From Lachnospiraceae bacterium (GTDB lineage: Bacteria; Bacillota; Clostridia; Lachnospirales; Lachnospiraceae): a stretch of DNA of 64,000 bases. Position numbers and translations under genes: made by a program. Positions 1 to 10,236 of the stretch are shown in pieces. The stretch spans positions 1-64,000 of the forward strand of contig JAGBOC010000016.1 of NCBI GenBank assembly GCA_017634065.1, written 5' to 3'. The notes beneath the pieces are model-generated. The model was not told the DNA's origin, did not search any database, and saw only the letters and a program-made list of their open reading frames with translations. How positions within the stretch are numbered: position 1 is the stretch's first letter; the number at the start of each line of letters is the position of its first letter.

Positions 1-103
1 ATCTCTTTTTGCAACTCTAATAAAATTTTTTATTGAAATTCAAGAAAAGTATAATAATATTTCCGATTTTTATGTTTTAATAATAGTTTTTACAATTTTA
101 TTA

Positions 104-328
104 TCATTGTTTTTTCTTGATATCAAACATATCAAAAGCAACTTTAAAGGCACAACCAAATCCCAAAAACGAAAAAACTTGAATAAAAAGAGACGAAAGA
201 AATAGAACTATTTCATCATCAATTTTTATTGATGTTACAAATCCACTTACAGAAAAACAAGAAAAAACAATTGCAAGCATTAGTACTCTAATATCTATTT
301 TAACTTTTTTGCTATCTTTGTTTTTCAT
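104..328 (-). CDS. Small two-helix membrane protein of the conjugative element
   Basis: This 74-residue protein of unknown function has a short lysine-rich N-terminus followed by two hydrophobic stretches (about residues 14-32 and 41-63), so it is probably a small integral membrane protein. I start it at the ATG at 328 because GGAGG lies eight bases upstream; the longer in-frame start at 352 would put that ribosome-binding site inside the gene. It is the last element gene visible on the left. Its leader is the complement of the RNA1 promoter and resembles the leader of the gene starting at 7378. No family was recognised. Confidence 0.6.
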   Translation of the reverse strand: MKNKDSKKVKIDIRVLMLAIVFSCFSVSGFVTSIKIDDEIVLFLSSLFIQVFSFLGFGCAFKVAFDMFDIKKKQ

Positions 329-345
329 TTTTTTAACCTCCATAC

Positions 346-373
346 TTGACAAAAATTAAATAAATGGTATAAT
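346..373 (+). promoter_or_regulatory. Sigma-70-type promoter for candidate RNA1
   Basis: TTGACA at 346-351 and TATAAT at 368-373 are separated by 16 bases, so both hexamers match consensus. It points rightwards, against every neighbouring gene, and has no open reading frame downstream. The only thing it can drive is the structured segment at about 380-494. A nearly identical arrangement recurs at 7395-7423. Confidence 0.75.
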
Positions 374-379
374 GATTAT

Positions 380-494
380 GTAAAACTTGAGCACTACCGA
401 GAGCATTAGGACTCTTGCATATAGACTCAAGTATAAAATAAGTGAGTGTAGATCGTGGGAATTAGACCCACGGAAGCTGCTCACTTATTTTATT
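380..494 (+). ncRNA. Candidate small antisense RNA (RNA1)
   Basis: About 115 nt of plus-strand RNA is expected between the promoter at 346-373 and the terminator ending near 491. Stem 1 pairs ACTTGAG (385-391) with CTCAAGT (426-432) and holds an inner 6-bp stem (398-403 with 412-417). Stem 2 pairs 435-446 with 480-491 perfectly and encloses CGTGGG/CCCACG (454-459 with 467-472) around a 7-nt AATTAGA loop. The RNA lies opposite the intercistronic leader between the MuF-C gene and the small membrane gene and ends at the MuF-C stop codon. The two-hairpin layout resembles antisense regulators such as FinP, but no known RNA family was recognised. Expression is inferred. Confidence 0.6.
435..493 (+). 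terminator. Terminator hairpin of RNA1
   Basis: A perfect 12-bp stem (435-446 with 480-491) ends in an A/T-rich run on both sides, so it could work in either direction. It also serves the convergent MuF-C gene, whose stop codon (490-492) lies in its right arm. Confidence 0.65.
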
Positions 495-1896
495 GTTGCA
501 AAATATCTTGTTTAGTCAAAACTTGTTTTTCTTTAAAGATTTCTATTCCTGTTTTCTTTTCAAGTTCATTTATATTTTTTTGATCTGTAAATAATAATTT
601 ATTATCATTAAGTGCTTTGTTTACAAAATTGTTGAAATTATCTTTCCCATATACACTTAATATAAAATTACTATCTATTTGTTTAAAATCATAAGTTCCT
701 TTTCCATTAGGTTCTATCGCTGCCATTACTGGAAGTTTGTTTTTATCAATATCGTTAAGTATTGCAACAACAGCTTTATCTTTACTCATTGACTTCATAA
801 TAATTGCTGGTTCTTTTAGTAATTCAGGGAGATTATAAAACTGTTCTTTTGATATATTATGTTCTTCATTACAATATTTAATATGTCTTTTTGTCATAAT
901 CATATCTAAATTAGTATCAAGTCCTATCTTCCCATATATTTCAGGAGTTTTACATATTTTTACAGCATTTAAAGTATCATCTAATATATCACTATCCAAC
1001 ACTTTATCAATTTCGGCTTTATAATCATTAAAGATTTTGTCTTCGTTTAAAGATTTTTGACCTATTTTTGTTGACATATTATCATACTCTTTAATTAATT
1101 CTTCAGTGAAATATTTGCCATTAGCATCGAAATGAGTATAATAAAAATCTATCGCAATAGAACTTACTTTTTCTATATATTCATTTAGCTTAGTTTCAAT
1201 TCTTAAAGATGACATATGATGTTTCATTAAGTTTGCATCATTTCCTAAATCTATAAGTGCCTTTTCTTTTGCAATATTTTTACTAATATCAATTATCCAA
1301 TCTTTTCTCTCTCTTTCTGTAAACTTATTCCACATTGGTTGCCAAACTTTCTTTAAGAAATCTTTGTTTAATATCTCTTCAATATGTTCGTGGAGTCTTT
1401 TACGAATAAAATCATTAAATGATACAATATAATCTTCTGCAATTGTTTTTTTTGTCTCCATAGTATATTCATAAGACTTTATATAATCTTCTTGTGCATT
1501 TGTTTTGTAATTTGATTCTTTTGATTTATTATAAAAGTCTTCATGTGATGCTTTATAAATTTCTACATAGAATTTTGATTGTGAAAAGCTATTATATATT
1601 AAGCTTTTAGTTGTATCTTGTAATGCTGACCAATCTCTAATCTGATGCTCAAAAACTTCTGCTTTATTAAAAAGTTCTTCTGCATCTTTATATTTAGTCC
1701 TTAACATAGAATACTTTTCATTTTCCTCTTTAGGTTTCCATGCTTCCTTAAATAAATCATCATACCTCTCACAAAGCCCTAATATGTTTAAATTACGACA
1801 AATATTATAGATTTCTTCAGAAGTCATATTTAGATTATCTTTATACATATCTGCAATAAATAGGTATTCCTCAGGTTTTAATTTCATTACACTCAT
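490..1896 (-). CDS. MuF-C-domain (BECR nuclease-like) protein after VirD4
   Basis: This 468-residue protein has a long, charged, mostly helical N-terminal region (about 1-310) and a C-terminal domain (about 315-468) that I recognise as phage MuF C-terminal-like. The recognisable pattern is a TKRH segment, FYNLPELL-EPAIIMKS, a LNDID strand, GTYDF, SVYG and a final LLFTD. The domain is assigned to the barnase/EndoU/colicin/RelE nuclease group in phages and conjugative elements. A paralogous domain is encoded at 7514-8278. AGGAG precedes the ATG, 13 bases after the virD4 stop, so the two are co-transcribed. It may be a protein transferred with DNA or a toxin-like effector; no signal peptide is present. 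Activity is not demonstrated by the sequence. Confidence 0.6.
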   Translation of the reverse strand: MSVMKLKPEEYLFIADMYKDNLNMTSEEIYNICRNLNILGLCERYDDLFKEAWKPKEENEKYSMLRTKYKDAEELFNKAEVFEHQIRDWSALQDTTKSLIYNSFSQSKFYVEIYKASHEDFYNKSKESNYKTNAQEDYIKSYEYTMETKKTIAEDYIVSFNDFIRKRLHEHIEEILNKDFLKKVWQPMWNKFTERERKDWIIDISKNIAKEKALIDLGNDANLMKHHMSSLRIETKLNEYIEKVSSIAIDFYYTHFDANGKYFTEELIKEYDNMSTKIGQKSLNEDKIFNDYKAEIDKVLDSDILDDTLNAVKICKTPEIYGKIGLDTNLDMIMTKRHIKYCNEEHNISKEQFYNLPELLKEPAIIMKSMSKDKAVVAILNDIDKNKLPVMAAIEPNGKGTYDFKQIDSNFILSVYGKDNFNNFVNKALNDNKLLFTDQKNINELEKKTGIEIFKEKQVLTKQDILQQ

Positions 1897-1909
1897 AATT
1901 TATCTCTCC

Positions 1910-4180
1910 TTACACTTTACCATAAAAATTTTTACTTCCTTGTCTATAAGCATTATTAGTAAATCCATTTATATAATTCACTACATCAGCATCTTCTACA
2001 AAAGGTCGCCAATATGATGGCTTATCTTCCTCAATTATTATAGGTCGCTCTTTTTCACGGACAAATCTCAAAACCTCATTATATTTCTCGTTTCCCATAT
2101 TATAAAGCCTATTAAATAGTGTTTTACCTATATCAGGGGTATTTGCCATAATAGGAGTTTCGCCGTCCATTACTAAAGCATATGGTCTTTTGAGCTGTGC
2201 AAGTTCTGAAGCTTGTAATAACTCTCTACCACACAAATTAGTTGAAGTTGATTGACTATTTATGTTTCCCTTTTCTTTACTACTACTTGTTGACATGCTA
2301 TTACTTGCTATAGTATATTTTCCAAGTTTCTTTGATAATTCTTCAAGTGTTGCTGGGTCTGTTGATTTTAAATATATCCAAGTTTGACAATTTGATTTTA
2401 TAATAGAAGTCGTTTCTTTATCATACTTCTTAATCATTTGTGCAAAATCTTGAAGAACTAAATTAAGTCTTATTCCTCTTCCAGCTCCTACTGTAAGCTT
2501 AGCTGCAAGATCGGGTATTGCTGCAAAGTTTCCAAATTCATCAAGGTCTAAATCTACTTGTATTGGAAGCCTACCACCATACTTATCAGACATCTTTACT
2601 AATTCATTATAAAGTTGGCTTACAATAATTGAAGCGATAGGATAATACATAGTATTCTCATCAGGAAGAATAATATAGAGTATTTGCTTTCGTTCTCCCA
2701 TCTCAGTTAAGTTTATATCTGTTCTGTGTGTTATCTTCCATATAGATGGTTGAGAATATAATCTTAATGTATTCATTGCTCCACTTATAAAAGAAAGTCT
2801 TGTCTGTTCTGCAGCATTTATAATTGGTGCAAAATTATCTATAGCTGGATGTGTTGGGTTTTTATCTTGTAAAAACTTTATATATTTTGCAAGAAGACAA
2901 GTGCTTGGGTCTGCTTCAGATTTTCCTTGACTATCATTGATAAATCTATACACACTTGCTAAATTCTGCTTTTCAGGTTCATCTTTATTTGCAATTATAG
3001 TTGATAAAATAGAGCCTGTAATAACAGCCTTTTGACCATCATGCCAAATTCTTTCGCCTTTACACTCTCCTACAAGAATATTAGACAATTCTTCAGTATA
3101 ATTTATTGCTCTATCTATATCATTATCATTTACAGCATCAATAATAGGTTGCAGAAGATTATATCTACTGCTTTTATCAGGGTTTTTAAAGTCAAGACAT
3201 ATAACTTCATAACCTAACTTTTTTACAAATTTATTTGTATATTGATAAAGTTCGCCTTTTGGATCAGATACACATATTGAATGCCCTGCAAGTGCTTGAT
3301 TTCCAATCGTAGGAAGTATAAAGCATCTTGTCTTACCGCTTCTTGTCGCTCCTAAATCAATTGTATGTAAATCAGATGAAATATAATGAATTTTATTTGT
3401 ACCATTTGCTAAAATATCAATATTGGCAATTATTCCACCTCTTTCAAAGATGATATATGGATCTTCTTTTTTATTATAAGGTGTTTTCTTTGCTTCTTCC
3501 TTTTTAACTTTTTCTTCTTCAATTTTTATTATATTTTTACAAAAGTCTAAATCTTCATCATCTTCAAATACATCAAGCATATTAAAATCGCTTTCTTCTA
3601 CACTTTCAATATTTGGCTCTACATAATTATCTTCATCATAATCTACAACTAATCGCATTCTATCTATATCTAAGCCTGCTTCTTTCTTTTCATTGCTACT
3701 ATAAGTTTTATGCTTATAAAGATTTTCACTATCTTCTTTAGATATACCACCCTTATCTAAGTAATACTTAATTTCAGAATTTTCTTTTTCATCAGGTTGT
3801 AAAAGCCTTTTAACAACTTCATTGTTTTCATCAAGAATATTATACTTATACTTTTTATCTAACTCTTTTTTATCAAGAAAATGTGCAGTTCCATATTGTC
3901 CTTGTCCAGCTGGTTCAGGTATATAAATATCATCTGTAACTTTTATCATATTTGACTTATATCTTGTCATCTTATTTGAAAGTTTAAAATATATTAAAAT
4001 GACTATAGCAATGATTAAAGCAATTATTGTCATTATATTTTGAAATGATTTTGTGCCTAAGACACTAAGTTTAGATTGTAAATCGCTATTATGAAAAACA
4101 GCATTATCAAAAAAATCTGTTGAAAAATTATAAGTTCCATTAGTTGCTGGATTTGTAAGTATTTGTTCAAATAAACTCAT
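1910..4180 (-). CDS. VirD4/TraG-type conjugative coupling protein
   Basis: This is the type IV coupling ATPase that links the relaxosome to the transfer channel. It is 756 residues long, with a hydrophobic helix at about 47-66, a very acidic linker (about 150-235), Walker A GATRSGKT (277-284) and a Walker B region with LDEFG near 546-550. It matches the VirD4-like proteins of Tn1549/CD1115-type elements in layout. Only one clear N-terminal membrane helix is visible, where many relatives have two. It is followed 13 bases later by a MuF-C-domain gene and preceded by an unknown gene that separates it from virB4. Family assignment is strong; the substrate is inferred from context. Confidence 0.93.
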   Translation of the reverse strand: MSLFEQILTNPATNGTYNFSTDFFDNAVFHNSDLQSKLSVLGTKSFQNIMTIIALIIAIVILIYFKLSNKMTRYKSNMIKVTDDIYIPEPAGQGQYGTAHFLDKKELDKKYKYNILDENNEVVKRLLQPDEKENSEIKYYLDKGGISKEDSENLYKHKTYSSNEKKEAGLDIDRMRLVVDYDEDNYVEPNIESVEESDFNMLDVFEDDEDLDFCKNIIKIEEEKVKKEEAKKTPYNKKEDPYIIFERGGIIANIDILANGTNKIHYISSDLHTIDLGATRSGKTRCFILPTIGNQALAGHSICVSDPKGELYQYTNKFVKKLGYEVICLDFKNPDKSSRYNLLQPIIDAVNDNDIDRAINYTEELSNILVGECKGERIWHDGQKAVITGSILSTIIANKDEPEKQNLASVYRFINDSQGKSEADPSTCLLAKYIKFLQDKNPTHPAIDNFAPIINAAEQTRLSFISGAMNTLRLYSQPSIWKITHRTDINLTEMGERKQILYIILPDENTMYYPIASIIVSQLYNELVKMSDKYGGRLPIQVDLDLDEFGNFAAIPDLAAKLTVGAGRGIRLNLVLQDFAQMIKKYDKETTSIIKSNCQTWIYLKSTDPATLEELSKKLGKYTIASNSMSTSSSKEKGNINSQSTSTNLCGRELLQASELAQLKRPYALVMDGETPIMANTPDIGKTLFNRLYNMGNEKYNEVLRFVREKERPIIIEEDKPSYWRPFVEDADVVNYINGFTNNAYRQGSKNFYGKV

Positions 4181-4207
4181 AAAAACTCCTTTTTTATAGT
4201 TTTAAAG

Positions 4208-4906
4208 TTATATGTCAACATTACTTTTCAGTTTTATAATATTTGTTGCCTTTTTAACAAAAGACTTTACATCTTCTTTCTGACCATTTGTTATATTTTT
4301 TATGTTTGACAATAAAAATATTATTGTTTTAAGTTCAGATAATGAAAAAGAATTGTTGTCTTTTAGTTCTTCTACTTCATAGAGCCCTGACCTTTTACTA
4401 AAAATACTTATTGCATCTTTTAGATTGTAAACTATATTTTCATCTTCATAAGGAATAAACAAATCTAAAACTTCATCATCTTCTTTCATAATGCTTTCAT
4501 ACAGTATATGGTAACTTATACCAAAAAAACCGTGTTCTCTATAGAATAAACATACATTGTCATATTTCATAATCAATTTATATATTTTCTTATTTATGTA
4601 ATACTCTTGATATTGACTAAGATTATATGGATAGTCATAGTCAATGTTGAGTTTTTTTAAAACTTCACCAATTATTTCTATAATCTCATTCCATTTATTT
4701 ATCATTGAATCAGATATATGCACTAAATCATCATCTATTAAATTAGGCACATCTGGAAATATAAGACCACTATTCTTTTCTATTTCAAAAGTAGAATCAT
4801 CATATATGAATTGAAAATATTCTTTTGACCGTTCGTTATTAAGCACCTCACAACCTTTACTTTTTAATACTTTTTCAAGTTCAGTAAAAATATTTTCATT
4901 TATCAT
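4208..4906 (-). CDS. Unknown cytosolic protein between virB4 and virD4
   Basis: This 232-residue acidic protein is rich in Ile, Asp and Glu and has no signal peptide or membrane helix. I do not recognise its family. Its ATG overlaps the virB4 stop by one base (TAATG), with GGAGG just upstream, so translation is probably coupled to virB4 and its product is likely made together with the transfer ATPases. Its place between the VirB4 and VirD4 genes suggests a transfer accessory or adaptor, but nothing in the protein itself shows that. Confidence 0.75.
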   Translation of the reverse strand: MINENIFTELEKVLKSKGCEVLNNERSKEYFQFIYDDSTFEIEKNSGLIFPDVPNLIDDDLVHISDSMINKWNEIIEIIGEVLKKLNIDYDYPYNLSQYQEYYINKKIYKLIMKYDNVCLFYREHGFFGISYHILYESIMKEDDEVLDLFIPYEDENIVYNLKDAISIFSKRSGLYEVEELKDNNSFSLSELKTIIFLLSNIKNITNGQKEDVKSFVKKATNIIKLKSNVDI

Positions 4907-6705
4907 TATCTACCTCCAGCACTACCCATATAATAAAACTCAGTTTCATCAATGACAAAATTAGTGTGTATTTTTTTAGTCCCAGCGATAAGTAAAGCAT
5001 GACCTCTAATTTGAGCCTCTAATAACTCCCTTTCTGCTTCAGTTAAATTAAATAATTTAATTTCTTCAAGTAAGTTTTGACCATCAGTTCCAAAAAGCAA
5101 CTTATAACAAGCTGTAGATAAAAGACTTTGACCATATTGTTTAATTGCTGGATTAAGAAAATCTTCCACATCATGAGTTATGAGTATTAAAGAACCCTCA
5201 TATTTTCTTATTCTCTTACTTATATTTCTTAAGAATATGAGAGTTTGCGGAACTTTGACATCAACCAGTAAATAAGATTCATCTGCACATATTAAAGTTT
5301 TTTCATTTCTGTCATGTTCCACCAAGTTCCATATATAAGTTATAACATTATAGTACTCAGCACTTTTCTTATTGTCGCTTGCACTTTGTAAATCTTTTAT
5401 ATCAAATACTACAAAGCTACTGTTTATATTTATATTTGTGTGTCCATTCCACAAGAATTGATCTGCACCTTGTACCATATCATATAAATAAGAAAGTAAA
5501 TTTTTTAGTTCGTTGTTTTCTTTATCCTTTTTGCTTTCTTCTTCTAAAGTTTCATATAAATCAGAAAGTATTGGATAATCTTCATTCTTTAAATTGTCTA
5601 TTTCTGTGTTCCAGTCAATACCTTTCTTTTTATATGTTTTTACTATACATTTTTTAAGCTGTGCCATTTCTAAATCAGTTATCCCATTATTATAGAGTTT
5701 GAAAAATACCTCTAAAGTTCCAATATGTCTTGCTAAGTCATTTAAGTTTTCTTTTTCAACTCCTACATTTTCTTCATCTTCATCTATAGGAGCTTTAAGT
5801 ATTTGCATAGGATTTATCTTATTTTTTCCACCTACAACATTTATAACATCTCCATCAAGTTCTTTAGCCATATTTATATACTCTCTTTCAGGATCAAGAG
5901 CAATTATTTTAGTACCTCTTGCATATTCATTTAATAAAATATGCTTAGTTGCTGTGGACTTTCCAGAACCTGGCTTTCCTGTTATAACCATATTACTATT
6001 GGTTCTATCATTACTTCTAAGCCAAAAATCAATAATGATAAGTGAATTATTTACATCTTTGCCAAGATAATATCCACTACCATCATTAAAACCTGTTGAA
6101 GCAAAAGGGAAACCACCTATATAAGTTGATAACGGCATTACTTTCCCAAAAATCTCGTTTATTCTCTCATTCATTTGATAAGTAGGACTTATACTCTCAA
6201 GACATTGCTTTTGAAGATTAGGAAGTGCCCTATTAAGCCCACTTATACTTGCGACATTATCATTTATAGTGTTTTCTACCTGTTCAAATAATTCTTCATT
6301 TTTAGAAAAGCCCATTATATTAACAGAAACTTGACCAATTCTTTCATTTGCTCTAAGTATCATTTCAAGCAAGTCATTCATATTCTCTACACTTATAGCT
6401 GCCTCTTTTATACTGTTCATTTCTCTACCTGTTTCTTGTTGTTCTAAGTTTTGTTTTGTATTTCTATTGATGGCGGCTGTTATAGCATTATTAGCAACAG
6501 GTCTATAATGTATATTTACAAAAGTATTAGGAATATTTGTAATTCTACTTAAGAACCCACAAGATGAAGTCTGTGGATATTTTGTAATACCATAAATTCT
6601 TGCAACATTTTCTCCATATTCAAAATTGTTTCTGTTTATCTTTACACAAGTTGGACTTAAAATATTTATAAGTCCTTTATTTACCTCTTTTTTCATTTTC
6701 GCCAT
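4906..6705 (-). CDS. VirB4-type conjugative ATPase (CD1110-like)
   Basis: This is the VirB4/TrsE-type ATPase that powers the type IV secretion channel. It is 599 residues long, with Walker A GKPGSGKS (243-250), a DPEREY motif shortly after, Walker B LICADES (471-477) and a downstream ITHD motif near 510. It begins directly in the middle part of the VirB4 fold. The expected N-terminal domain is encoded by the overlapping upstream gene (29-base overlap, different frame). A GGGGG-type ribosome-binding site precedes the ATG. The size matches the CD1110-like group rather than the roughly 800-residue VirB4 proteins. Confidence 0.93.
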   Translation of the reverse strand: MAKMKKEVNKGLINILSPTCVKINRNNFEYGENVARIYGITKYPQTSSCGFLSRITNIPNTFVNIHYRPVANNAITAAINRNTKQNLEQQETGREMNSIKEAAISVENMNDLLEMILRANERIGQVSVNIMGFSKNEELFEQVENTINDNVASISGLNRALPNLQKQCLESISPTYQMNERINEIFGKVMPLSTYIGGFPFASTGFNDGSGYYLGKDVNNSLIIIDFWLRSNDRTNSNMVITGKPGSGKSTATKHILLNEYARGTKIIALDPEREYINMAKELDGDVINVVGGKNKINPMQILKAPIDEDEENVGVEKENLNDLARHIGTLEVFFKLYNNGITDLEMAQLKKCIVKTYKKKGIDWNTEIDNLKNEDYPILSDLYETLEEESKKDKENNELKNLLSYLYDMVQGADQFLWNGHTNININSSFVVFDIKDLQSASDNKKSAEYYNVITYIWNLVEHDRNEKTLICADESYLLVDVKVPQTLIFLRNISKRIRKYEGSLILITHDVEDFLNPAIKQYGQSLLSTACYKLLFGTDGQNLLEEIKLFNLTEAERELLEAQIRGHALLIAGTKKIHTNFVIDETEFYYMGSAGGR

Positions 6706-7378
6706 ATAAATCTTCCCCCTTCAATATAGATATATTATTTTTATCATCTTCTACATTATCGTAATTATAAGTACCAAGATTATTAAATAGATTAATGAGT
6801 TTTCTTATTTGCTTTGTGTTTAGTATATGTACCTTAAGTCCTGCAGCCATTAACCTACTTTTAAAGTTTTCAGTCATTTTGTTTATGTCTTCTAAATCTT
6901 TATCAGATACTAACTTAAAATAAAACTTTCTTTCAGTTGTGTTTCCTTGTTCAACAAAATTTCTAAGTATTCTCTCATTGTTTTTAAGCAATATCCTTTG
7001 TTTTGAGTTATTTGTTTTTCTTAAATCATCATCAAATTGCTTTAGAAGTTTATCTACATTAAAAGGTTGGCTTATTGCAAATAAGTCAAAATCGTGCTGA
7101 ATGTTTACAAGTTCCGCTCTTAAGTTTCTTATAAGTCTTGACTTATCATTTTCGGACAAAAGGTCTATACAAATTGATTCAATTTCTATAAACTTAATAA
7201 ACAATCCATTTAGTGTATATAGACAATCGTTGTCTATATCACAGACATTTAAGAAGCTTTGACTTGTGTCCTTTTCATCCTTTCCAAGTTTAACTTTTAC
7301 TTTTTTTGAATTATTAGAAACCATTAAATAAATGATTCCTAAAACTCCTACTACTCCAAGATATATAAAACCTTGCAT
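6677..7378 (-). CDS. Membrane-anchored VirB4 N-terminal-domain protein
   Basis: This 233-residue protein has one N-terminal transmembrane helix (about 4-21). The soluble part resembles the N-terminal domain of TrsE/VirB4, with an IEIESI strand, a LLSENDK turn and a long helix, and lacks any ATPase motif. It sits where a PrgI-type membrane protein is usually found ahead of virB4. It overlaps virB4 by 29 bases in another frame, so this is either a natural split or an old frameshift. Each part has its own ribosome-binding site, which favours two proteins. GGAGG precedes the ATG. The leader is opposite the RNA2 promoter. Confidence 0.65.
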   Translation of the reverse strand: MQGFIYLGVVGVLGIIYLMVSNNSKKVKVKLGKDEKDTSQSFLNVCDIDNDCLYTLNGLFIKFIEIESICIDLLSENDKSRLIRNLRAELVNIQHDFDLFAISQPFNVDKLLKQFDDDLRKTNNSKQRILLKNNERILRNFVEQGNTTERKFYFKLVSDKDLEDINKMTENFKSRLMAAGLKVHILNTKQIRKLINLFNNLGTYNYDNVEDDKNNISILKGEDLYGENEKRGK

Positions 7379-7394
7379 TTTTCACCTCCAAAAT

Positions 7395-7423
7395 TTGACA
7401 AAATTGTTGTTTTATGATAGTAT
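7395..7423 (+). promoter_or_regulatory. Promoter for candidate RNA2
   Basis: TTGACA (7395-7400) and TAGTAT (7418-7423) are spaced by 17 bases, with a TGA just before the -10 giving an extended -10 element. It faces away from the gene starting at 7378 and into the 3' end of the MuF-C gene, exactly as at 346-373. Confidence 0.65.
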
Positions 7424-7429
7424 GTTTGT

Positions 7430-7516
7430 AAAGAGTTGGGGGCAATTGTAGCCCTTTCATCTTTTTATAAATTAAGTGGCTCTGTTCATTATGCGACAGA
7501 TCGTCCACTTTTTTTA
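7430..7516 (+). ncRNA. Candidate small antisense RNA (RNA2)
   Basis: About 87 nt of plus-strand RNA is expected between the promoter at 7395-7423 and the T-run at 7509-7515. Stem 1 is GGGC (7440-7443) paired with GCCC (7451-7454) around an AATTGTA loop. Stem 2 pairs AAGTGG (7474-7479) with CCACTT (7505-7510) and contains TCTGT/ACAGA. It ends in the stop codon of the convergent MuF-C gene and lies opposite the leader of the VirB4 N-domain gene. RNA1 also has a 7-nt AATTNNA-type loop closed by GGG/CCC, so the two may be distant paralogues. No known family was recognised and expression is inferred. Confidence 0.55.
7474..7516 (+). terminator. Terminator of RNA2
   Basis: The AAGTGG/CCACTT stem is followed by seven T residues on the plus strand, while the minus strand has only a weak T-run. 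This makes it a rightward Rho-independent terminator and supports transcription against the operon. Confidence 0.7.
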
Positions 7517-8278
7517 TTGCTGCTGTTCAAGCAAGTTTTCATTCTCTTTATTAAATATTTTCATACTTGTTTTTACTTCAAGATCCTTTATAACCAATTC
7601 ATCTGTAAATAAGATTTTGTCTTTATTGTCATTTAAAAACTTGCTAAAATTTTCTCGCCCATATATAGAAGTAAGTAAATTTGTGTCAATTTGCTCAAAA
7701 TCGTATGTGCCTTTTTCATCAGGTTTAATAGAAGCCATAATAGGATTTTTTTCATTGTCTATATCATTTAAAAATACAATTATTGACTTTTCATCTTTTT
7801 GCGACTTCATTATTATTGCTGGATTTTCAAATAACTTAGGTAAATTGTATAATGTTTGTCTATTTATTCCATGTCCACCCTGTTCTTTATCTTTGCAACA
7901 AATTCTTACTTTCCCTCTTTTCATTGTAATTAAATTATCATCAAGCCCTACTTGTTTTAAAGTTTCTGTAGGCTTACAAATTTTTAAATAATTAGATTCA
8001 TTTGATAAACTGTCTTTTACATCAATAATTCTATCAATTTCAGCTTCATATATTTTTTGTTTTAGTTGAATTAAGTCAAATTTTTCAATATCTTTTCTAT
8101 TATTGTATTCATTTTTCGGAATAAAAATTTTATCAACAAGGCTTGGATTTAAATTATGAGTATTAGTATTAATAAGATTAGTTAATTTAAATAAAACAGC
8201 ACAGTCAGTATTTTTATCGAAGAAAACACCATATACATCATAATTAATTTTAGCCCATTCACTATATTTAATTTCCAT
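7514..8278 (-). CDS. Second MuF-C-domain protein
   Basis: This 254-residue protein has a C-terminal part (about 95-254) paralogous to the end of the protein at 490-1896. Shared features include EIDRIID, KICKPTE, a GLD-NL segment, LYNLPKLF-NPAIIMKS, LNDID, GTYDF, SIYG and LFTDE, and both end in glutamines. The N-terminal 90 residues differ and are not recognised. It follows a terminator-like hairpin pair after the secreted-protein gene and precedes the VirB4 N-domain gene. The ATG is preceded by AGGAAATATTAAA, a weak ribosome-binding site. The role is unknown; a nuclease-type effector or an inactive relative are both possible. Confidence 0.6.
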   Translation of the reverse strand: MEIKYSEWAKINYDVYGVFFDKNTDCAVLFKLTNLINTNTHNLNPSLVDKIFIPKNEYNNRKDIEKFDLIQLKQKIYEAEIDRIIDVKDSLSNESNYLKICKPTETLKQVGLDDNLITMKRGKVRICCKDKEQGGHGINRQTLYNLPKLFENPAIIMKSQKDEKSIIVFLNDIDNEKNPIMASIKPDEKGTYDFEQIDTNLLTSIYGRENFSKFLNDNKDKILFTDELVIKDLEVKTSMKIFNKENENLLEQQQ

Positions 8279-8322
8279 ATTTTAATATTTCCTTTCTACT
8301 TAACATTTTATAAATTAAAAGA

Positions 8323-8362
8323 GAGCCTATAATACATTTGTTTCTTTAATGTTTATAGACTC
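8323..8362 (-). terminator. Terminator-like hairpin before the second MuF-C gene
   Basis: GAGCCTATAA (8323-8332) pairs with TTATAGACTC (8353-8362), and ACATT/AATGT extends the stem. On the minus strand it is followed by TCTTTTAATTT. It probably ends or attenuates transcription from the secreted-protein gene. Confidence 0.55.
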
Positions 8363-8376
8363 CCCTGGTAATTAGT

Positions 8377-8429
8377 CTTGACTTTAACTAATTCATTTAT
8401 TTTGGAAGATCACTTCAATTAAAGTCAAG
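8377..8429. repeat. 11-bp inverted repeat after the secreted-protein gene
   Basis: CTTGACTTTAA (8377-8387) and TTAAAGTCAAG (8419-8429) are perfect inverted arms 31 bases apart. The repeat starts two bases after the stop codon at 8432. It could protect the mRNA 3' end or bind a protein. It is next to the terminator-like hairpin at 8323-8362. Confidence 0.6.
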
Positions 8430-8431
8430 CC

Positions 8432-9784
8432 TTAGTTTCCTTGTTTTATATGTAAATCATCCCATATACTACCTACTACTTCCATATATTGACTTGTAGA
8501 TAGTGTAAGCTCTCCTGCTGGACAAAAACACGAACTTACTTCTGCCAGCACCTCATATGCTCCATCAGGAAAATATATCGGTATATAATGCACATTATTA
8601 TTAAAATGGCTATATGGATTTTTCGGTATATCATTTTCCATAGTATGAAAATTAGGAAGTCCATAATGCACATTACTTGGATCATTGTCAATATCCTTAT
8701 TCTCTCCTCTATCTGCATATGTATCATAATCAAACTCAGGATAATAATACATTGTAACTTGTGGATGTGTAAAATACTCTTTATAGTCATACTGTATAGC
8801 TAATGGATTAGGTGGAAAGCTATATATTGATGAGCAATTAACTCTATACCATACTCCATAACCACTTCTTATAGTTTCTATCCTATCATAATCAAAATCT
8901 TGTGGGTAACCATCAGGAAAAGGAGTGTTATCAGCGAGCTGTAATTTTTGACTTGTAATTTGTAAAGCTACAGAGTGATCCCATCTTTCCCAAATAACTT
9001 CTCCCCAATCTTGAGCTTGTACATTACAATCTCCAGTAGGACACTCGTGATTTTCTGCATTTTCAGGACATCTGTGCATCATACAAGTTACATCAGCATC
9101 CCCATCTAAACTATCATATTCTTCAGGGTATCCATCTGTATCATTTCCTGACCTTGTACATACATAATGCCAATCTTCTTCCCATCTATAAGTATATGTA
9201 TGAAATTGATGTAAAAGAACATCAGCCATTCTTCCCACAGGTGCAGAAGTTTCTATATCTCCCTCATCTCTATAGTCATCATAATTAGTATCAGGTGGAA
9301 CATTATATTTAGGATTATATATTTTACAAGTTATAGTTGCAGATGTTTTTTGTTCTCTATTAATAAGTATATATCCACCACTTGAAACACTTACATTTAT
9401 AGTAACCGTTCTTTCATCAAATAAAGTATTAATTTTAGGGGTTTTCCATTTAACCCAAAATAATCTTGTTTCGCCTTTAGCTATTGCACCTTGTTGTGTA
9501 TGAGAACCACAAGCACCTGAGAAGCTTACTCTACATTCGCCAGTTTTATTTACAGCTCCAGCTTTAGCATCATCATCTTTTCTCTCATGGGGTCTATAAT
9601 TTTGTCTTGGAAAGCCCTCAGGAGCATATACTTCTACAGCAGTTATTACTTCAACATCATCATTATACTCATGATAATTCCCAGTCCAATTTGCATTATT
9701 ATCATAAAAATTATAAGAATAAGTTATATTAATATTCATTATAGCAATTATAATAAAAACTATGATTTTTGATATTACTTTCAT
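8432..9784 (-). CDS. Large secreted Tyr/Asp/Cys-rich protein of the transfer region
   Basis: This 450-residue protein has an N-terminal signal peptide (hydrophobic residues about 5-22, then a polar stretch) and no later membrane helix. The mature part is rich in Tyr, Asp, Trp and Pro and has about a dozen cysteines, with several clusters (near CMMHRCPE, ECPTGDC, SCFCP), so it is probably disulphide-stabilised and outside the cell. I do not recognise the family. The gene lies among pseudopilin-like and conjugation genes, so a surface adhesin or mating-contact role is possible but only inferred. It is followed by hairpins that separate it from the MuF-C gene. Confidence 0.75.
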   Translation of the reverse strand: MKVISKIIVFIIIAIMNINITYSYNFYDNNANWTGNYHEYNDDVEVITAVEVYAPEGFPRQNYRPHERKDDDAKAGAVNKTGECRVSFSGACGSHTQQGAIAKGETRLFWVKWKTPKINTLFDERTVTINVSVSSGGYILINREQKTSATITCKIYNPKYNVPPDTNYDDYRDEGDIETSAPVGRMADVLLHQFHTYTYRWEEDWHYVCTRSGNDTDGYPEEYDSLDGDADVTCMMHRCPENAENHECPTGDCNVQAQDWGEVIWERWDHSVALQITSQKLQLADNTPFPDGYPQDFDYDRIETIRSGYGVWYRVNCSSIYSFPPNPLAIQYDYKEYFTHPQVTMYYYPEFDYDTYADRGENKDIDNDPSNVHYGLPNFHTMENDIPKNPYSHFNNNVHYIPIYFPDGAYEVLAEVSSCFCPAGELTLSTSQYMEVVGSIWDDLHIKQGN

Positions 9785-9792
9785 ATTTCCTC

Positions 9793-10236
9793 CTACTCAT
9801 CATTTATATCATAATAATAAATCTTTCCAGTATGATAATTAGGTATATTGCTTATTGCATTTGACCGTGTTGGAATACTTACTTTTTCTATGTCATATTT
9901 CACAGATGAATATGTAGAAACTATAAGACTATTTTTGTTCCCTGCATAATACTCACTTATATTAGTTTTGTTTTCATTTTCTTCGCTATGACTATTGTTC
10001 TCATCACTATAGTTATTTACTATTTCATTATTTGTAATGTTTTCAGGGTTTAATTCCTCTTCAATAAATTCTACATCATTTGTTTTCTTTTCTTCACCCC
10101 ATATATCTTTATACTCAACTTTTTTATAATTTGTTTCATAAATAAATATCATAGCTAAGACTAAAAGTATTATAAAAATAAATATAATTGCAAACATTTT
10201 TACTTGCTTTTCTTTCTTTTTACTATCTTTATACAT
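9793..10236 (-). CDS. Bitopic membrane protein
   Basis: This 147-residue protein has a basic N-terminus, one transmembrane helix (about 13-33) and an Asn/Glu-rich extracytoplasmic tail of low complexity. It lies 8 bases before the secreted-protein gene and shares its operon. The tail would face the wall, so a channel or surface accessory is plausible. No family is recognised. Confidence 0.65.
   Translation of the reverse strand: MYKDSKKKEKQVKMFAIIFIFIILLVLAMIFIYETNYKKVEYKDIWGEEKKTNDVEFIEEELNPENITNNEIVNNYSDENNSHSEENENKTNISEYYAGNKNSLIVSTYSSVKYDIEKVSIPTRSNAISNIPNYHTGKIYYYDINDE

What the first reader, a model, noticed from the sequence alone, without database searches (positions are those of the whole stretch)
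346..1896. MuF-C gene with a convergent antisense RNA (module 1)
A consensus promoter (TTGACA-16-TATAAT) drives a short structured RNA into the 3' end of a MuF-C-domain gene, and the RNA ends at that gene's stop codon. The RNA is also complementary to the intercistronic leader of the next gene. MuF-C belongs to the BECR nuclease group used in phage and conjugation conflicts. A two-hairpin antisense RNA here could limit the effector or the transfer operon, like FinP or an RNA antitoxin. I know of no described pairing of this kind.
Basis: partly seen in the sequence, partly recalled or inferred. Interest (0 to 1): 0.8.

Follow-up and report, generated by a model that had tools for sequence, protein, structure and literature searches.

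The report
Antisense RNA hidden in MuF-C genes
Genes for a predicted RNA-cutting protein carried by phages and conjugative elements also hold, on the opposite DNA strand at the end of that protein domain, the signals for a small structured RNA with its own promoter and terminator; the RNA in this window looks like one of them, and the searches made found no description of it.

Summary
At 346-497 a perfect extended promoter starts a roughly 115-nt two-hairpin RNA that ends on the stop codon of a MuF_C gene (PF18819). The window's second MuF_C gene has the same layout (7395-7517). A covariance model from two related RNAs then matched the antisense strand at MuF_C domain ends elsewhere. Tested on Pfam-selected MuF_C genes with a coding tail, the opposite strand carries a near-consensus promoter (TTGACA-17-TATAAT type) and a hairpin-in-hairpin terminator beyond what the protein requires: one valine is GTC in 29 of 30 genes (8% of valines in the domains); in 15 representatives below 50% identity, promoter Stouffer z +10.8, fold z -17. 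All 11 modelled pairs show compensatory changes. Of 54 phage ORFs kept after fetching by a 15-nt hairpin word, 52 encode MuF_C. No Rfam match. In the window the ORFs stop early, so the RNA gene lies outside. Most likely it is a cis-antisense silencer or antidote of the predicted RNase, working like B. subtilis SR6/yonT; protein binding is not excluded. No transcript has been seen. Module 1 matches the family model R2 only at its promoter.

The parts
346..373 (+). Promoter of RNA 1: TTGACA-16-TATAAT with extended -10 TG
   Evidence: 12 of 12 match; best site in 64 kb on both strands
380..497 (+). Antisense RNA 1 (start and end predicted): hairpin A 385-432, hairpin B 433-493 with inner 7-nt loop AATTAGA at 460-466, U-rich tail
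   Evidence: -41.6 kcal/mol, z -5.6 against shuffles; R1 match 403-502 at 25.9 bits; R2 match 342-439 only 11.6 bits
490..1896 (-). MuF_C gene 1, 468 aa; Pfam MuF_C domain at 568-879
   Evidence: PF18819 5.2e-19; place of the domain
7395..7423 (+). Promoter of RNA 2: TTGACA-17-TAGTAT with extended -10 TG
   Evidence: aligned with the family promoter by R2
7430..7517 (+). Antisense RNA 2 (start and end predicted): family hairpin GGGGGCAATTGTAGCCCTT at 7438-7456, second hairpin 7467-7517 ending over the MuF_C stop
   Evidence: z -4.4; R2 match 7391-7475, 21.9 bits, best of 35 in window 1-10000
7514..8278 (-). MuF_C gene 2, 254 aa; Pfam MuF_C domain at 7601-7894
   Evidence: PF18819 3.8e-16; place
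7389..7466 (-). Likely remnant of the MuF_C protein tail (..KGLQLP..TIIKQQ..) after the stop of gene 2, in another frame; its opposite strand holds promoter 2 and the family hairpin
   Evidence: three-frame reading compared by eye with coding tails; borders approximate
104..328 (-). Next gene after MuF_C gene 1 (74 aa, no Pfam match at 0.01); its leader is complementary to RNA 1
6677..7378 (-). Next gene after MuF_C gene 2 (no Pfam match at 0.01; lies before the ORF 4906-6705 that I named VirB4-like from its translation); its leader is complementary to RNA 2

Best explanation
MuF_C genes carry a second gene on their opposite strand. Just past the MuF_C domain a sigma-A/sigma-70-type promoter points back at the domain and makes a short RNA (about 65-115 nt). 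The RNA folds as an outer stem around an inner hairpin, usually with a 7-nt loop near AAUUGGA, and ends in a U-tract over the last domain codons. In most genes examined the unit is written inside the coding sequence of the protein's tail; in this window the ORFs stop early and the unit stands alone. SHOWN by sequence: the unit, its position, selection on silent sites, compensatory base changes, strong association with MuF_C. INFERRED: it is transcribed, and it keeps the predicted RNase of the mobile element silent in the cell that carries the element, by pairing with the MuF_C mRNA (RNase III cleavage and/or collision of polymerases), as SR6 does with yonT. I hold the RNA gene itself at about 0.9 and the cis-antisense mode of action at about 0.5.
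For: Silent-site test on 26 Pfam-selected genes with a coding tail: promoter score mean 11.5 of 13 against 8.7 for synonymous recodings, 23 of 26 at p < 0.05; valine codon GTC in 25 of 26 against 19 of 226 valines in the domains; the same with one out-of-frame gene removed from the codon pool; GTC in 4 of 4 genes added later. Fold of the antisense RNA better than recodings at p < 0.05 in 24 of 26. Shifted windows: promoter z between -0.8 and +0.4 on both strands against +2.8 at the site; antisense fold z -0.6 to +0.2 apart from the overlapping shifts, against -4.0 at the site. In 15 representatives below 50% identity: GTC 15 of 15, Stouffer z +10.8 (promoter), -17.0 (fold). Invariant alignment columns: TT.AC of -35, TA...T of -10 and one T of the U-tract. 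Covariation 0.495 against 0.193 +/- 0.017 shuffled (0 of 500) and at most 0.225 slid; 11 of 11 pairs with changes on both sides (alignment fitted to the model). Of 54 ORFs kept from contigs fetched by the 15-nt hairpin word, 52 have MuF_C. In 51 tail stretches from those contigs the outer stem, inner codons held fixed, has mean z -1.7 (Stouffer -12.4), and lysines over the U-tract are AAA in 70 of 77 against 42.7 expected. In the window the protein tail is out of frame or gone while the promoters stay at 13 and 11 of 13.
Against: No transcript was seen. Module 1 matches the family model R2 only at its promoter (11.6 bits, E 0.41, third of 35 in 10 kb; not listed at E <= 10). G684 has a promoter-hairpin-terminator unit at the right place but no likeness to the model (14.5 bits). 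Promoter test not significant alone in 3 of 26 genes (G368a, G291, G138), fold test in 2 of 26 (G368c, G802). The sense strand at the site also folds better than recodings (z -3.0). In gammaproteobacterial-type phages the promoter is weak (TTGCGA-17-TATTTT), and fold excess is absent in L161 (z +0.06 and +0.34) and small in L249 (-1.1). L247, found by protein alone, shows the layout by eye but neither test is strong (promoter z 1.9, fold z -1.0). Copies without MuF_C nearby by eye: G006, L190, L194, L208, L209, L217. RNase activity of MuF_C is predicted, not shown. AlphaFold on the two window sequences failed (pLDDT 39).
Confidence: 0.6

Rival explanations
1. The RNA is an antidote or cofactor that binds the MuF_C protein itself (like type III RNA antitoxins): the RNase is held or fed by the hairpin encoded on its own gene's other strand.
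For: The RNA's shape and loop are conserved, inner helix 98% of cells paired, and a like hairpin is kept where the sequence is not MuF_C-coding (window module 2; G006), which simple complementarity does not require. The predicted enzyme is an RNase (passages).
Against: No repeats, no RNA gene upstream on the same strand, no binding data. Conserved loops are also expected for antisense kissing complexes (recalled).
Confidence: 0.25
2. The element works as DNA or as an act of transcription: antisense transcription and a terminator at the domain edge lower readthrough of the long polyvalent ORF, and the RNA itself has no role.
For: Promoter and terminator are both conserved.
Against: Compensatory changes in the inner hairpin and its kept loop go beyond a terminator's needs.
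Confidence: 0.12
3. The antisense signals are a by-product of the conserved protein tail (KEKSQ..GLQLP..IIHxSxNxVK).
For: Most copies lie inside coding sequence and the tail is conserved; this was my own first reading of the R1 hits.
Against: Synonymous recoding controls, compensatory pairs and promoters kept where the tail is not coding.
Confidence: 0.03
4. In this window the unit is a FinP-like regulator of the conjugation operon rather than of MuF_C.
For: RNA 1 and RNA 2 are complementary to the leaders of the next operon genes.
Against: The ribosome sites are not covered; the unit goes with MuF_C, not with transfer genes: it is found in phage contigs, and 16 of 16 genomes with the closest VirD4 have no MuF_C.
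Confidence: 0.08

Closest known systems
SR6/yonT/yoyJ, type I toxin-antitoxin of B. subtilis prophage SPbeta (PMC5848175; abstract and passages)
   Same: About 100-nt antisense RNA with its own extended -10 sigma-A promoter, convergent on the 3' end of one gene and on the 5' side of the next gene of an operon, carried by a mobile element.
   Different: YonT is a 58-aa toxin and SR6 overlaps it by about 65 nt; here the partner is a predicted RNase domain in proteins of about 190 to 3000 aa, the unit is usually inside the coding sequence, the RNA has a conserved hairpin-in-hairpin, and in the window it does not reach the next gene's ribosome site.
txpA/RatA, bsrG/SR4 and C. difficile convergent type I modules (PMC6563280; passages)
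   Same: Antisense RNAs convergent on, or complementary to, toxin mRNAs in mobile elements of Firmicutes; RNase III decay for txpA/RatA.
   Different: Small proteins as toxins, not nuclease domains; no dual coding mentioned in the passages seen.
symE/SymR and ralR/RalA (recalled; the terms occur in papers listed)
   Same: Type I systems whose toxin is a nuclease (recalled).
   Different: Unrelated proteins; different antisense layout (recalled).
Type III systems ToxIN, CptIN, TenpIN (recalled)
   Same: RNase toxin of a mobile element paired with a structured RNA.
   Different: RNA upstream on the same strand in tandem repeats, processed by the toxin; none of this seen here.
PBECR / MuF-C domains of polyvalent proteins (Iyer et al. 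2017, PMC5512222; passages)
   Same: The protein side of this unit.
   Different: No RNA partner in the passages seen; 0 occurrences of 'antisense' or 'small RNA' in the main text.

Membership tests
MuF_C (PF18819) | Profile match over the curated cut-off | tested here: met
   68.7 and 59.5 bits against 27.6
[quoted passage not shown]
   Gene 1 has candidates (RHIKYC, ILSVYG); gene 2 has no His at the aligned place (by eye); structure model too poor
New MuF_C antisense RNA family (this report) | Antisense promoter of TTGACA-16..18-TATAAT type just past the MuF_C domain | tested here: met
   Modules 1 and 2
New MuF_C antisense RNA family (this report) | Match to covariance model R2 | tested here: inconclusive
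   Module 2 21.9 bits, E 0.0057 in 10 kb; module 1 11.6 bits, E 0.41
Type I toxin-antitoxin (SR6-like) | Convergent antisense RNA at the gene's 3' end | tested here: met
   Geometry in the window; overlap with the ORF itself is only a few nt there
Type I toxin-antitoxin (SR6-like) | Toxic protein whose mRNA is degraded or silenced by the RNA | not testable with these tools
   Needs expression experiments
Type III toxin-antitoxin | Tandem-repeat RNA upstream of the toxin on the same strand (recalled) | tested here: not met
   Single antisense unit at the 3' side
Known Rfam families | Match at or over gathering score | tested here: not met
   Window, L076 and L029: none; six more loci at E <= 1: two matches, both under gathering and away from the unit
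FinP-like fertility inhibition | Antisense to the leader of a transfer activator gene, with partner chaperone (recalled) | not tested
   No such gene recognised next to the RNA

The most novel reading that the evidence does not exclude
A toxin-antidote system in which both parts are written on the two strands of the same stretch of DNA: the C-terminal edge of a BECR RNase domain carries, in its silent codon positions, a complete antisense gene for a structured RNA that neutralises that RNase by binding it or its mRNA. Recombination that shuffles these domains among phages and conjugative elements would then always move poison and antidote together, and incoming DNA could make the antidote at once from a host-type promoter.
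Probability: 0.4. Interest if true: 0.95.

Novelty: new variant of a known kind. Interest (0 to 1): 0.87.

Why it matters
PBECR domains occur in up to 26% of the polyvalent proteins surveyed by Iyer et al. (passage), yet how the carrier survives them is not known to me, and no RNA partner appears in the searches made. A conserved RNA gene written in the silent positions of the domain's edge gives a direct candidate, a testable pair, and a clear case of dual coding on opposite strands. The 15-nt hairpin word is also a practical marker: of 54 ORFs kept after fetching by it, 52 encode MuF_C.

Tried and rejected
Ordinary-promoter explanation: blast hits of 340-520 in relatives covered only the promoter stretch in nearly all rows; one lies before an FMN-riboswitch-like sequence, by eye. 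Gene-end survey by a hand-made score: 12 or more in the 4 genes whose stop lies within about 120 nt of the domain, in 2 of 27 other MuF_C genes (4 more had no stop in the stretch), and in 1 of 115 control genes (117 less two that were MuF_C genes). I made the score after looking at those four cases, and the next nearest stops, G368c (about 130 nt) and G607c (about 165 nt), did not reach 12, so the survey is only suggestive. Likeness of RNA 1 and RNA 2 by plain alignment: p 0.0015-0.0045 against shuffles, but other places in the window score as high or higher; not relied on. Close relatives of the window's MuF_C proteins: none in plasmids, genome contigs or IMG/VR by peptide patterns; 3 phage records; 8 of 397 family genomes including its own. 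Rfam near-matches rli117 and DUF2693 are far under gathering. The structure prediction failed and was not searched further.

Selection effects: R1 came from two sequences noticed by eye. R2 was trained on 28 sequences including the 26 tested by recoding, so its scores on them are by construction; the recoding tests do not use R1 or R2. Thirteen of the 14 loci hold a MuF_C gene by choice, so only the position of the matches counts there. I left 9 of the 35 over-cut-off MuF_C places out of the first recoding test: mod1, mod2, G001 and G684 have no full coding tail, and G051, G631, G734a, G734b and G757 I had not marked. Four of these were tested later; G757 only by R2 (51 bits). Codon usage was pooled over the MuF_C domains (main set); G757 entered that pool out of frame, and a rerun without it gave the same counts. 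Per-locus tables were used and for L160, L161 and L247. Of the 85 IMG/VR loci fetched by the 15-mer, 80 went to R2 (57 with a match at E <= 0.05). Of 86 places, 14 duplicates, 8 without the tail, 7 without an open frame and 3 at contig ends were dropped, leaving 54; the 54 ORFs are a separate selection (six with under 100 open codons upstream dropped), and so are the 51, which include L209.

Full report
What is in the window. The window is the first 64 kb of a 143-kb contig of a 1.6-Mb draft genome, so nothing is known left of base 1. From 1 to about 18 kb it holds what I read as a conjugation cluster on the minus strand (VirD4-, VirB4-, relaxase- and ParA/ParB-like; named by me from the translations, with sequence likeness to genes of other elements, but not run against family libraries). 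Two genes there carry MuF_C (PF18819), at 490-1896 and 7514-8278. Of the 14 sites scoring 11 or more, five lie outside ORFs of 100 codons or more; two of these are on the + strand, and they face the stops of exactly these two genes. RNA 1 folds at z -5.6 and RNA 2 at z -4.4 against shuffles; both strands fold, so the strand rests on promoter and U-tract.

From one case to a family. A MuF_C gene in another species of the genus (G001) had a 12-of-12 promoter and a hairpin terminator at its 3' end. That unit, from promoter to terminator, is 80% identical in a third species (G006), where only a short remnant of the protein's tail, and no MuF_C domain, is beside it; 3 of 20 pairs are compensatory between the two. 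A covariance model of the two (R1) searched in 92 genomes returned those two and, as its only other match at E <= 0.05, the 3' edge of a MuF_C domain in another genus (G018, E 0.03). Over 14 loci (159 kb, 13 of them chosen for a MuF_C gene) its next seven matches lie antisense at MuF_C domain ends or in the window's two RNAs: G607, G018, G368 (two genes), RNA 1, G741, RNA 2. In 39 further loci it matched that place in 18 of 29 with an over-cut-off MuF_C gene (E up to 10).

Is it only the protein? In most of these genes the reading frame runs through the unit and encodes a conserved tail (KEKSQ..GLQLP..[IS]I.......V[KN]), so protein conservation was the obvious explanation. I took the 35 MuF_C places over Pfam's cut-off, marked the tail in 26 by amino acids, and recoded each stretch synonymously. 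The real sequence carries a far better antisense promoter than the recodings (mean 11.5 against 8.7; 23 of 26 at p <= 0.036, 3 at 0.10-0.14), and the valine under the -35 is GTC in 25 of 26, although GTC is 19 of 226 valines in the domains. The antisense RNA folds better than recodings in 24 of 26 at p < 0.05, as an outer stem around an inner hairpin followed by a U-tract. One gene had entered the codon pool out of frame; without it the counts are the same, 23 and 24 of 26. Windows shifted by steps of 10 codons, on both strands, show no promoter excess, and little fold excess beyond the shifts that overlap the unit; the sense strand at the site also folds (z -3.0) but has no promoter. With 15 representatives below 50% identity: GTC 15 of 15, Stouffer z +10.8 and -17.0; over all 26 genes serine is AGT in 14 of 14 and isoleucine ATA in 22 of 22 where the tail has these residues. 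Four genes I had first left out agree: GTC in 4 of 4, fold z -4.0 to -7.0. Of the 35 places G757 and the four without a full coding tail were not recoded.

Structure. In the alignment of 28 units the invariant columns are the TT.AC of the -35, the TA...T of the -10 and one T of the U-tract. On 59 model-aligned sequences all 11 pairs have changes on both sides, the covariation score is 0.495 against 0.193 +/- 0.017 for shuffles and at most 0.225 for slid partners, and the inner helix pairs in 98% of cells. The outer helix pairs in 71%, partly because its register differs between groups.

Reach. The 15-nt word GGGCAATTGGAGCCC, taken from the RNA, fetched 85 viral contigs. Of 54 distinct ORFs that read it as LQLP with at least 100 open codons before it, 52 encode MuF_C there. 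In 51 tail stretches from these contigs the outer stem is under silent-site constraint even with the inner hairpin codons held fixed (mean z -1.7, 19 below -2, Stouffer -12.4), and lysines over the U-tract are AAA in 70 of 77 against 42.7 expected. Promoter excess in 54 places is weaker, mean z +1.5, with many copies of TTGCGA-17-TATTTT type. So the hairpin-terminator is the more widespread part and the strong promoter is clearest in the Clostridia-type genes. In four phage records found by protein, fold z was -5.9 (L248) and -3.1 to -3.4 (L160), but -1.1 (L249) and about 0 (L161); promoter z 0.7, 1.7-1.8, 2.2 and about 2.1. One more phage locus found only by protein similarity, with a different tail, has TTGCAA-17-TATAAT, an outer stem, an inner hairpin and a U-tract by eye, but R2 gives it 13.8 bits (E 0.13) and the recoding tests are weak (promoter z 1.9, fold z -1.0).

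Back to the window. Here the ORFs stop before the tail. After gene 2 the tail's GLQLP..TII.QQ is still readable in another frame, with promoter 2 and the family hairpin on its opposite strand (R2 21.9 bits, best of 35 in 10 kb). After gene 1 the RNA body has diverged: R2 aligns the promoter but scores 11.6 bits, while R1 gave 25.9 bits to 403-502, where hairpin B has an inner 7-nt loop AATTAGA. So module 2 is a good member of the family; module 1 belongs by position, promoter and layout but not by model score. That both kept promoters while the protein tail was lost argues that the RNA is selected for itself.

How it may work. MuF-C is a predicted BECR RNase domain (passages of PMC5512222). 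An antisense RNA made from the gene's own 3' edge is complementary to the mRNA over its whole length. The closest worked-out case is SR6, a 100-nt RNA with an extended -10 promoter that overlaps the yonT 3' end and the start of the next gene and sends yonT mRNA to RNase III (PMC5848175, abstract and passages). I therefore favour silencing of the RNase in the carrier cell (about 0.5), with protein binding (about 0.25) as the main rival, because shape and loop are conserved more than complementarity needs.

Novelty. Rfam has no matching family in what was scanned. Text searches for MuF-C, polyvalent proteins with antisense transcripts, and BECR-type toxins with RNA antitoxins listed no paper that describes it (titles and abstract openings of capped listings, 4 of 4 papers but 8 of 577). 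PMC5512222 has no 'antisense' or 'small RNA' in its main text. These searches cover open-licence PMC papers only. I file it as a new variant of cis-antisense RNA control; if the RNA proves to bind the protein, it would be a new class.

Noticed in passing
window 7514-8278 (-): MuF_C protein 2 lacks the histidine that aligns with the proposed BECR catalytic His of other members (by eye), so it may be inactive.
   Followed up: partly
L153 1486-1606 and 1651-2145 (G006): A copy of the RNA without a MuF_C domain sits between an HsdS-like gene (by eye) and a gene with a weak CdiA_C match (25.0 bits, under the cut-off of 26.6).
   Followed up: partly
L190, L194, L208, L209, L217: Copies of the RNA hairpin outside recognisable MuF_C genes in viral contigs, most with a long outer stem; in L190 the tail peptide lies at the start of another small phage protein.
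   Followed up: partly
L226 3379-3462: The hairpin word occurs twice 69 nt apart in one phage ORF, so the unit can be duplicated in tandem.
   Followed up: no
L136 5080-5275 (G684, Faecalimonas umbilicata): The RNA unit after an ArdC-N/metallopeptidase/MuF_C gene is flanked by near-identical palindromes (TTCCGAAATTCGGAA type), possibly regulator sites; the RNA body does not resemble the family model.
   Followed up: partly
window 4906-7378 (-): The VirB4-like gene appears split into two overlapping genes, with a like pair in another element (L147: virB4 and virB4N matches).
   Followed up: no
window 1-205: The contig begins inside the element at base 1; a short open frame runs off the edge, so the gene after 104-328 is unknown.
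   Followed up: no
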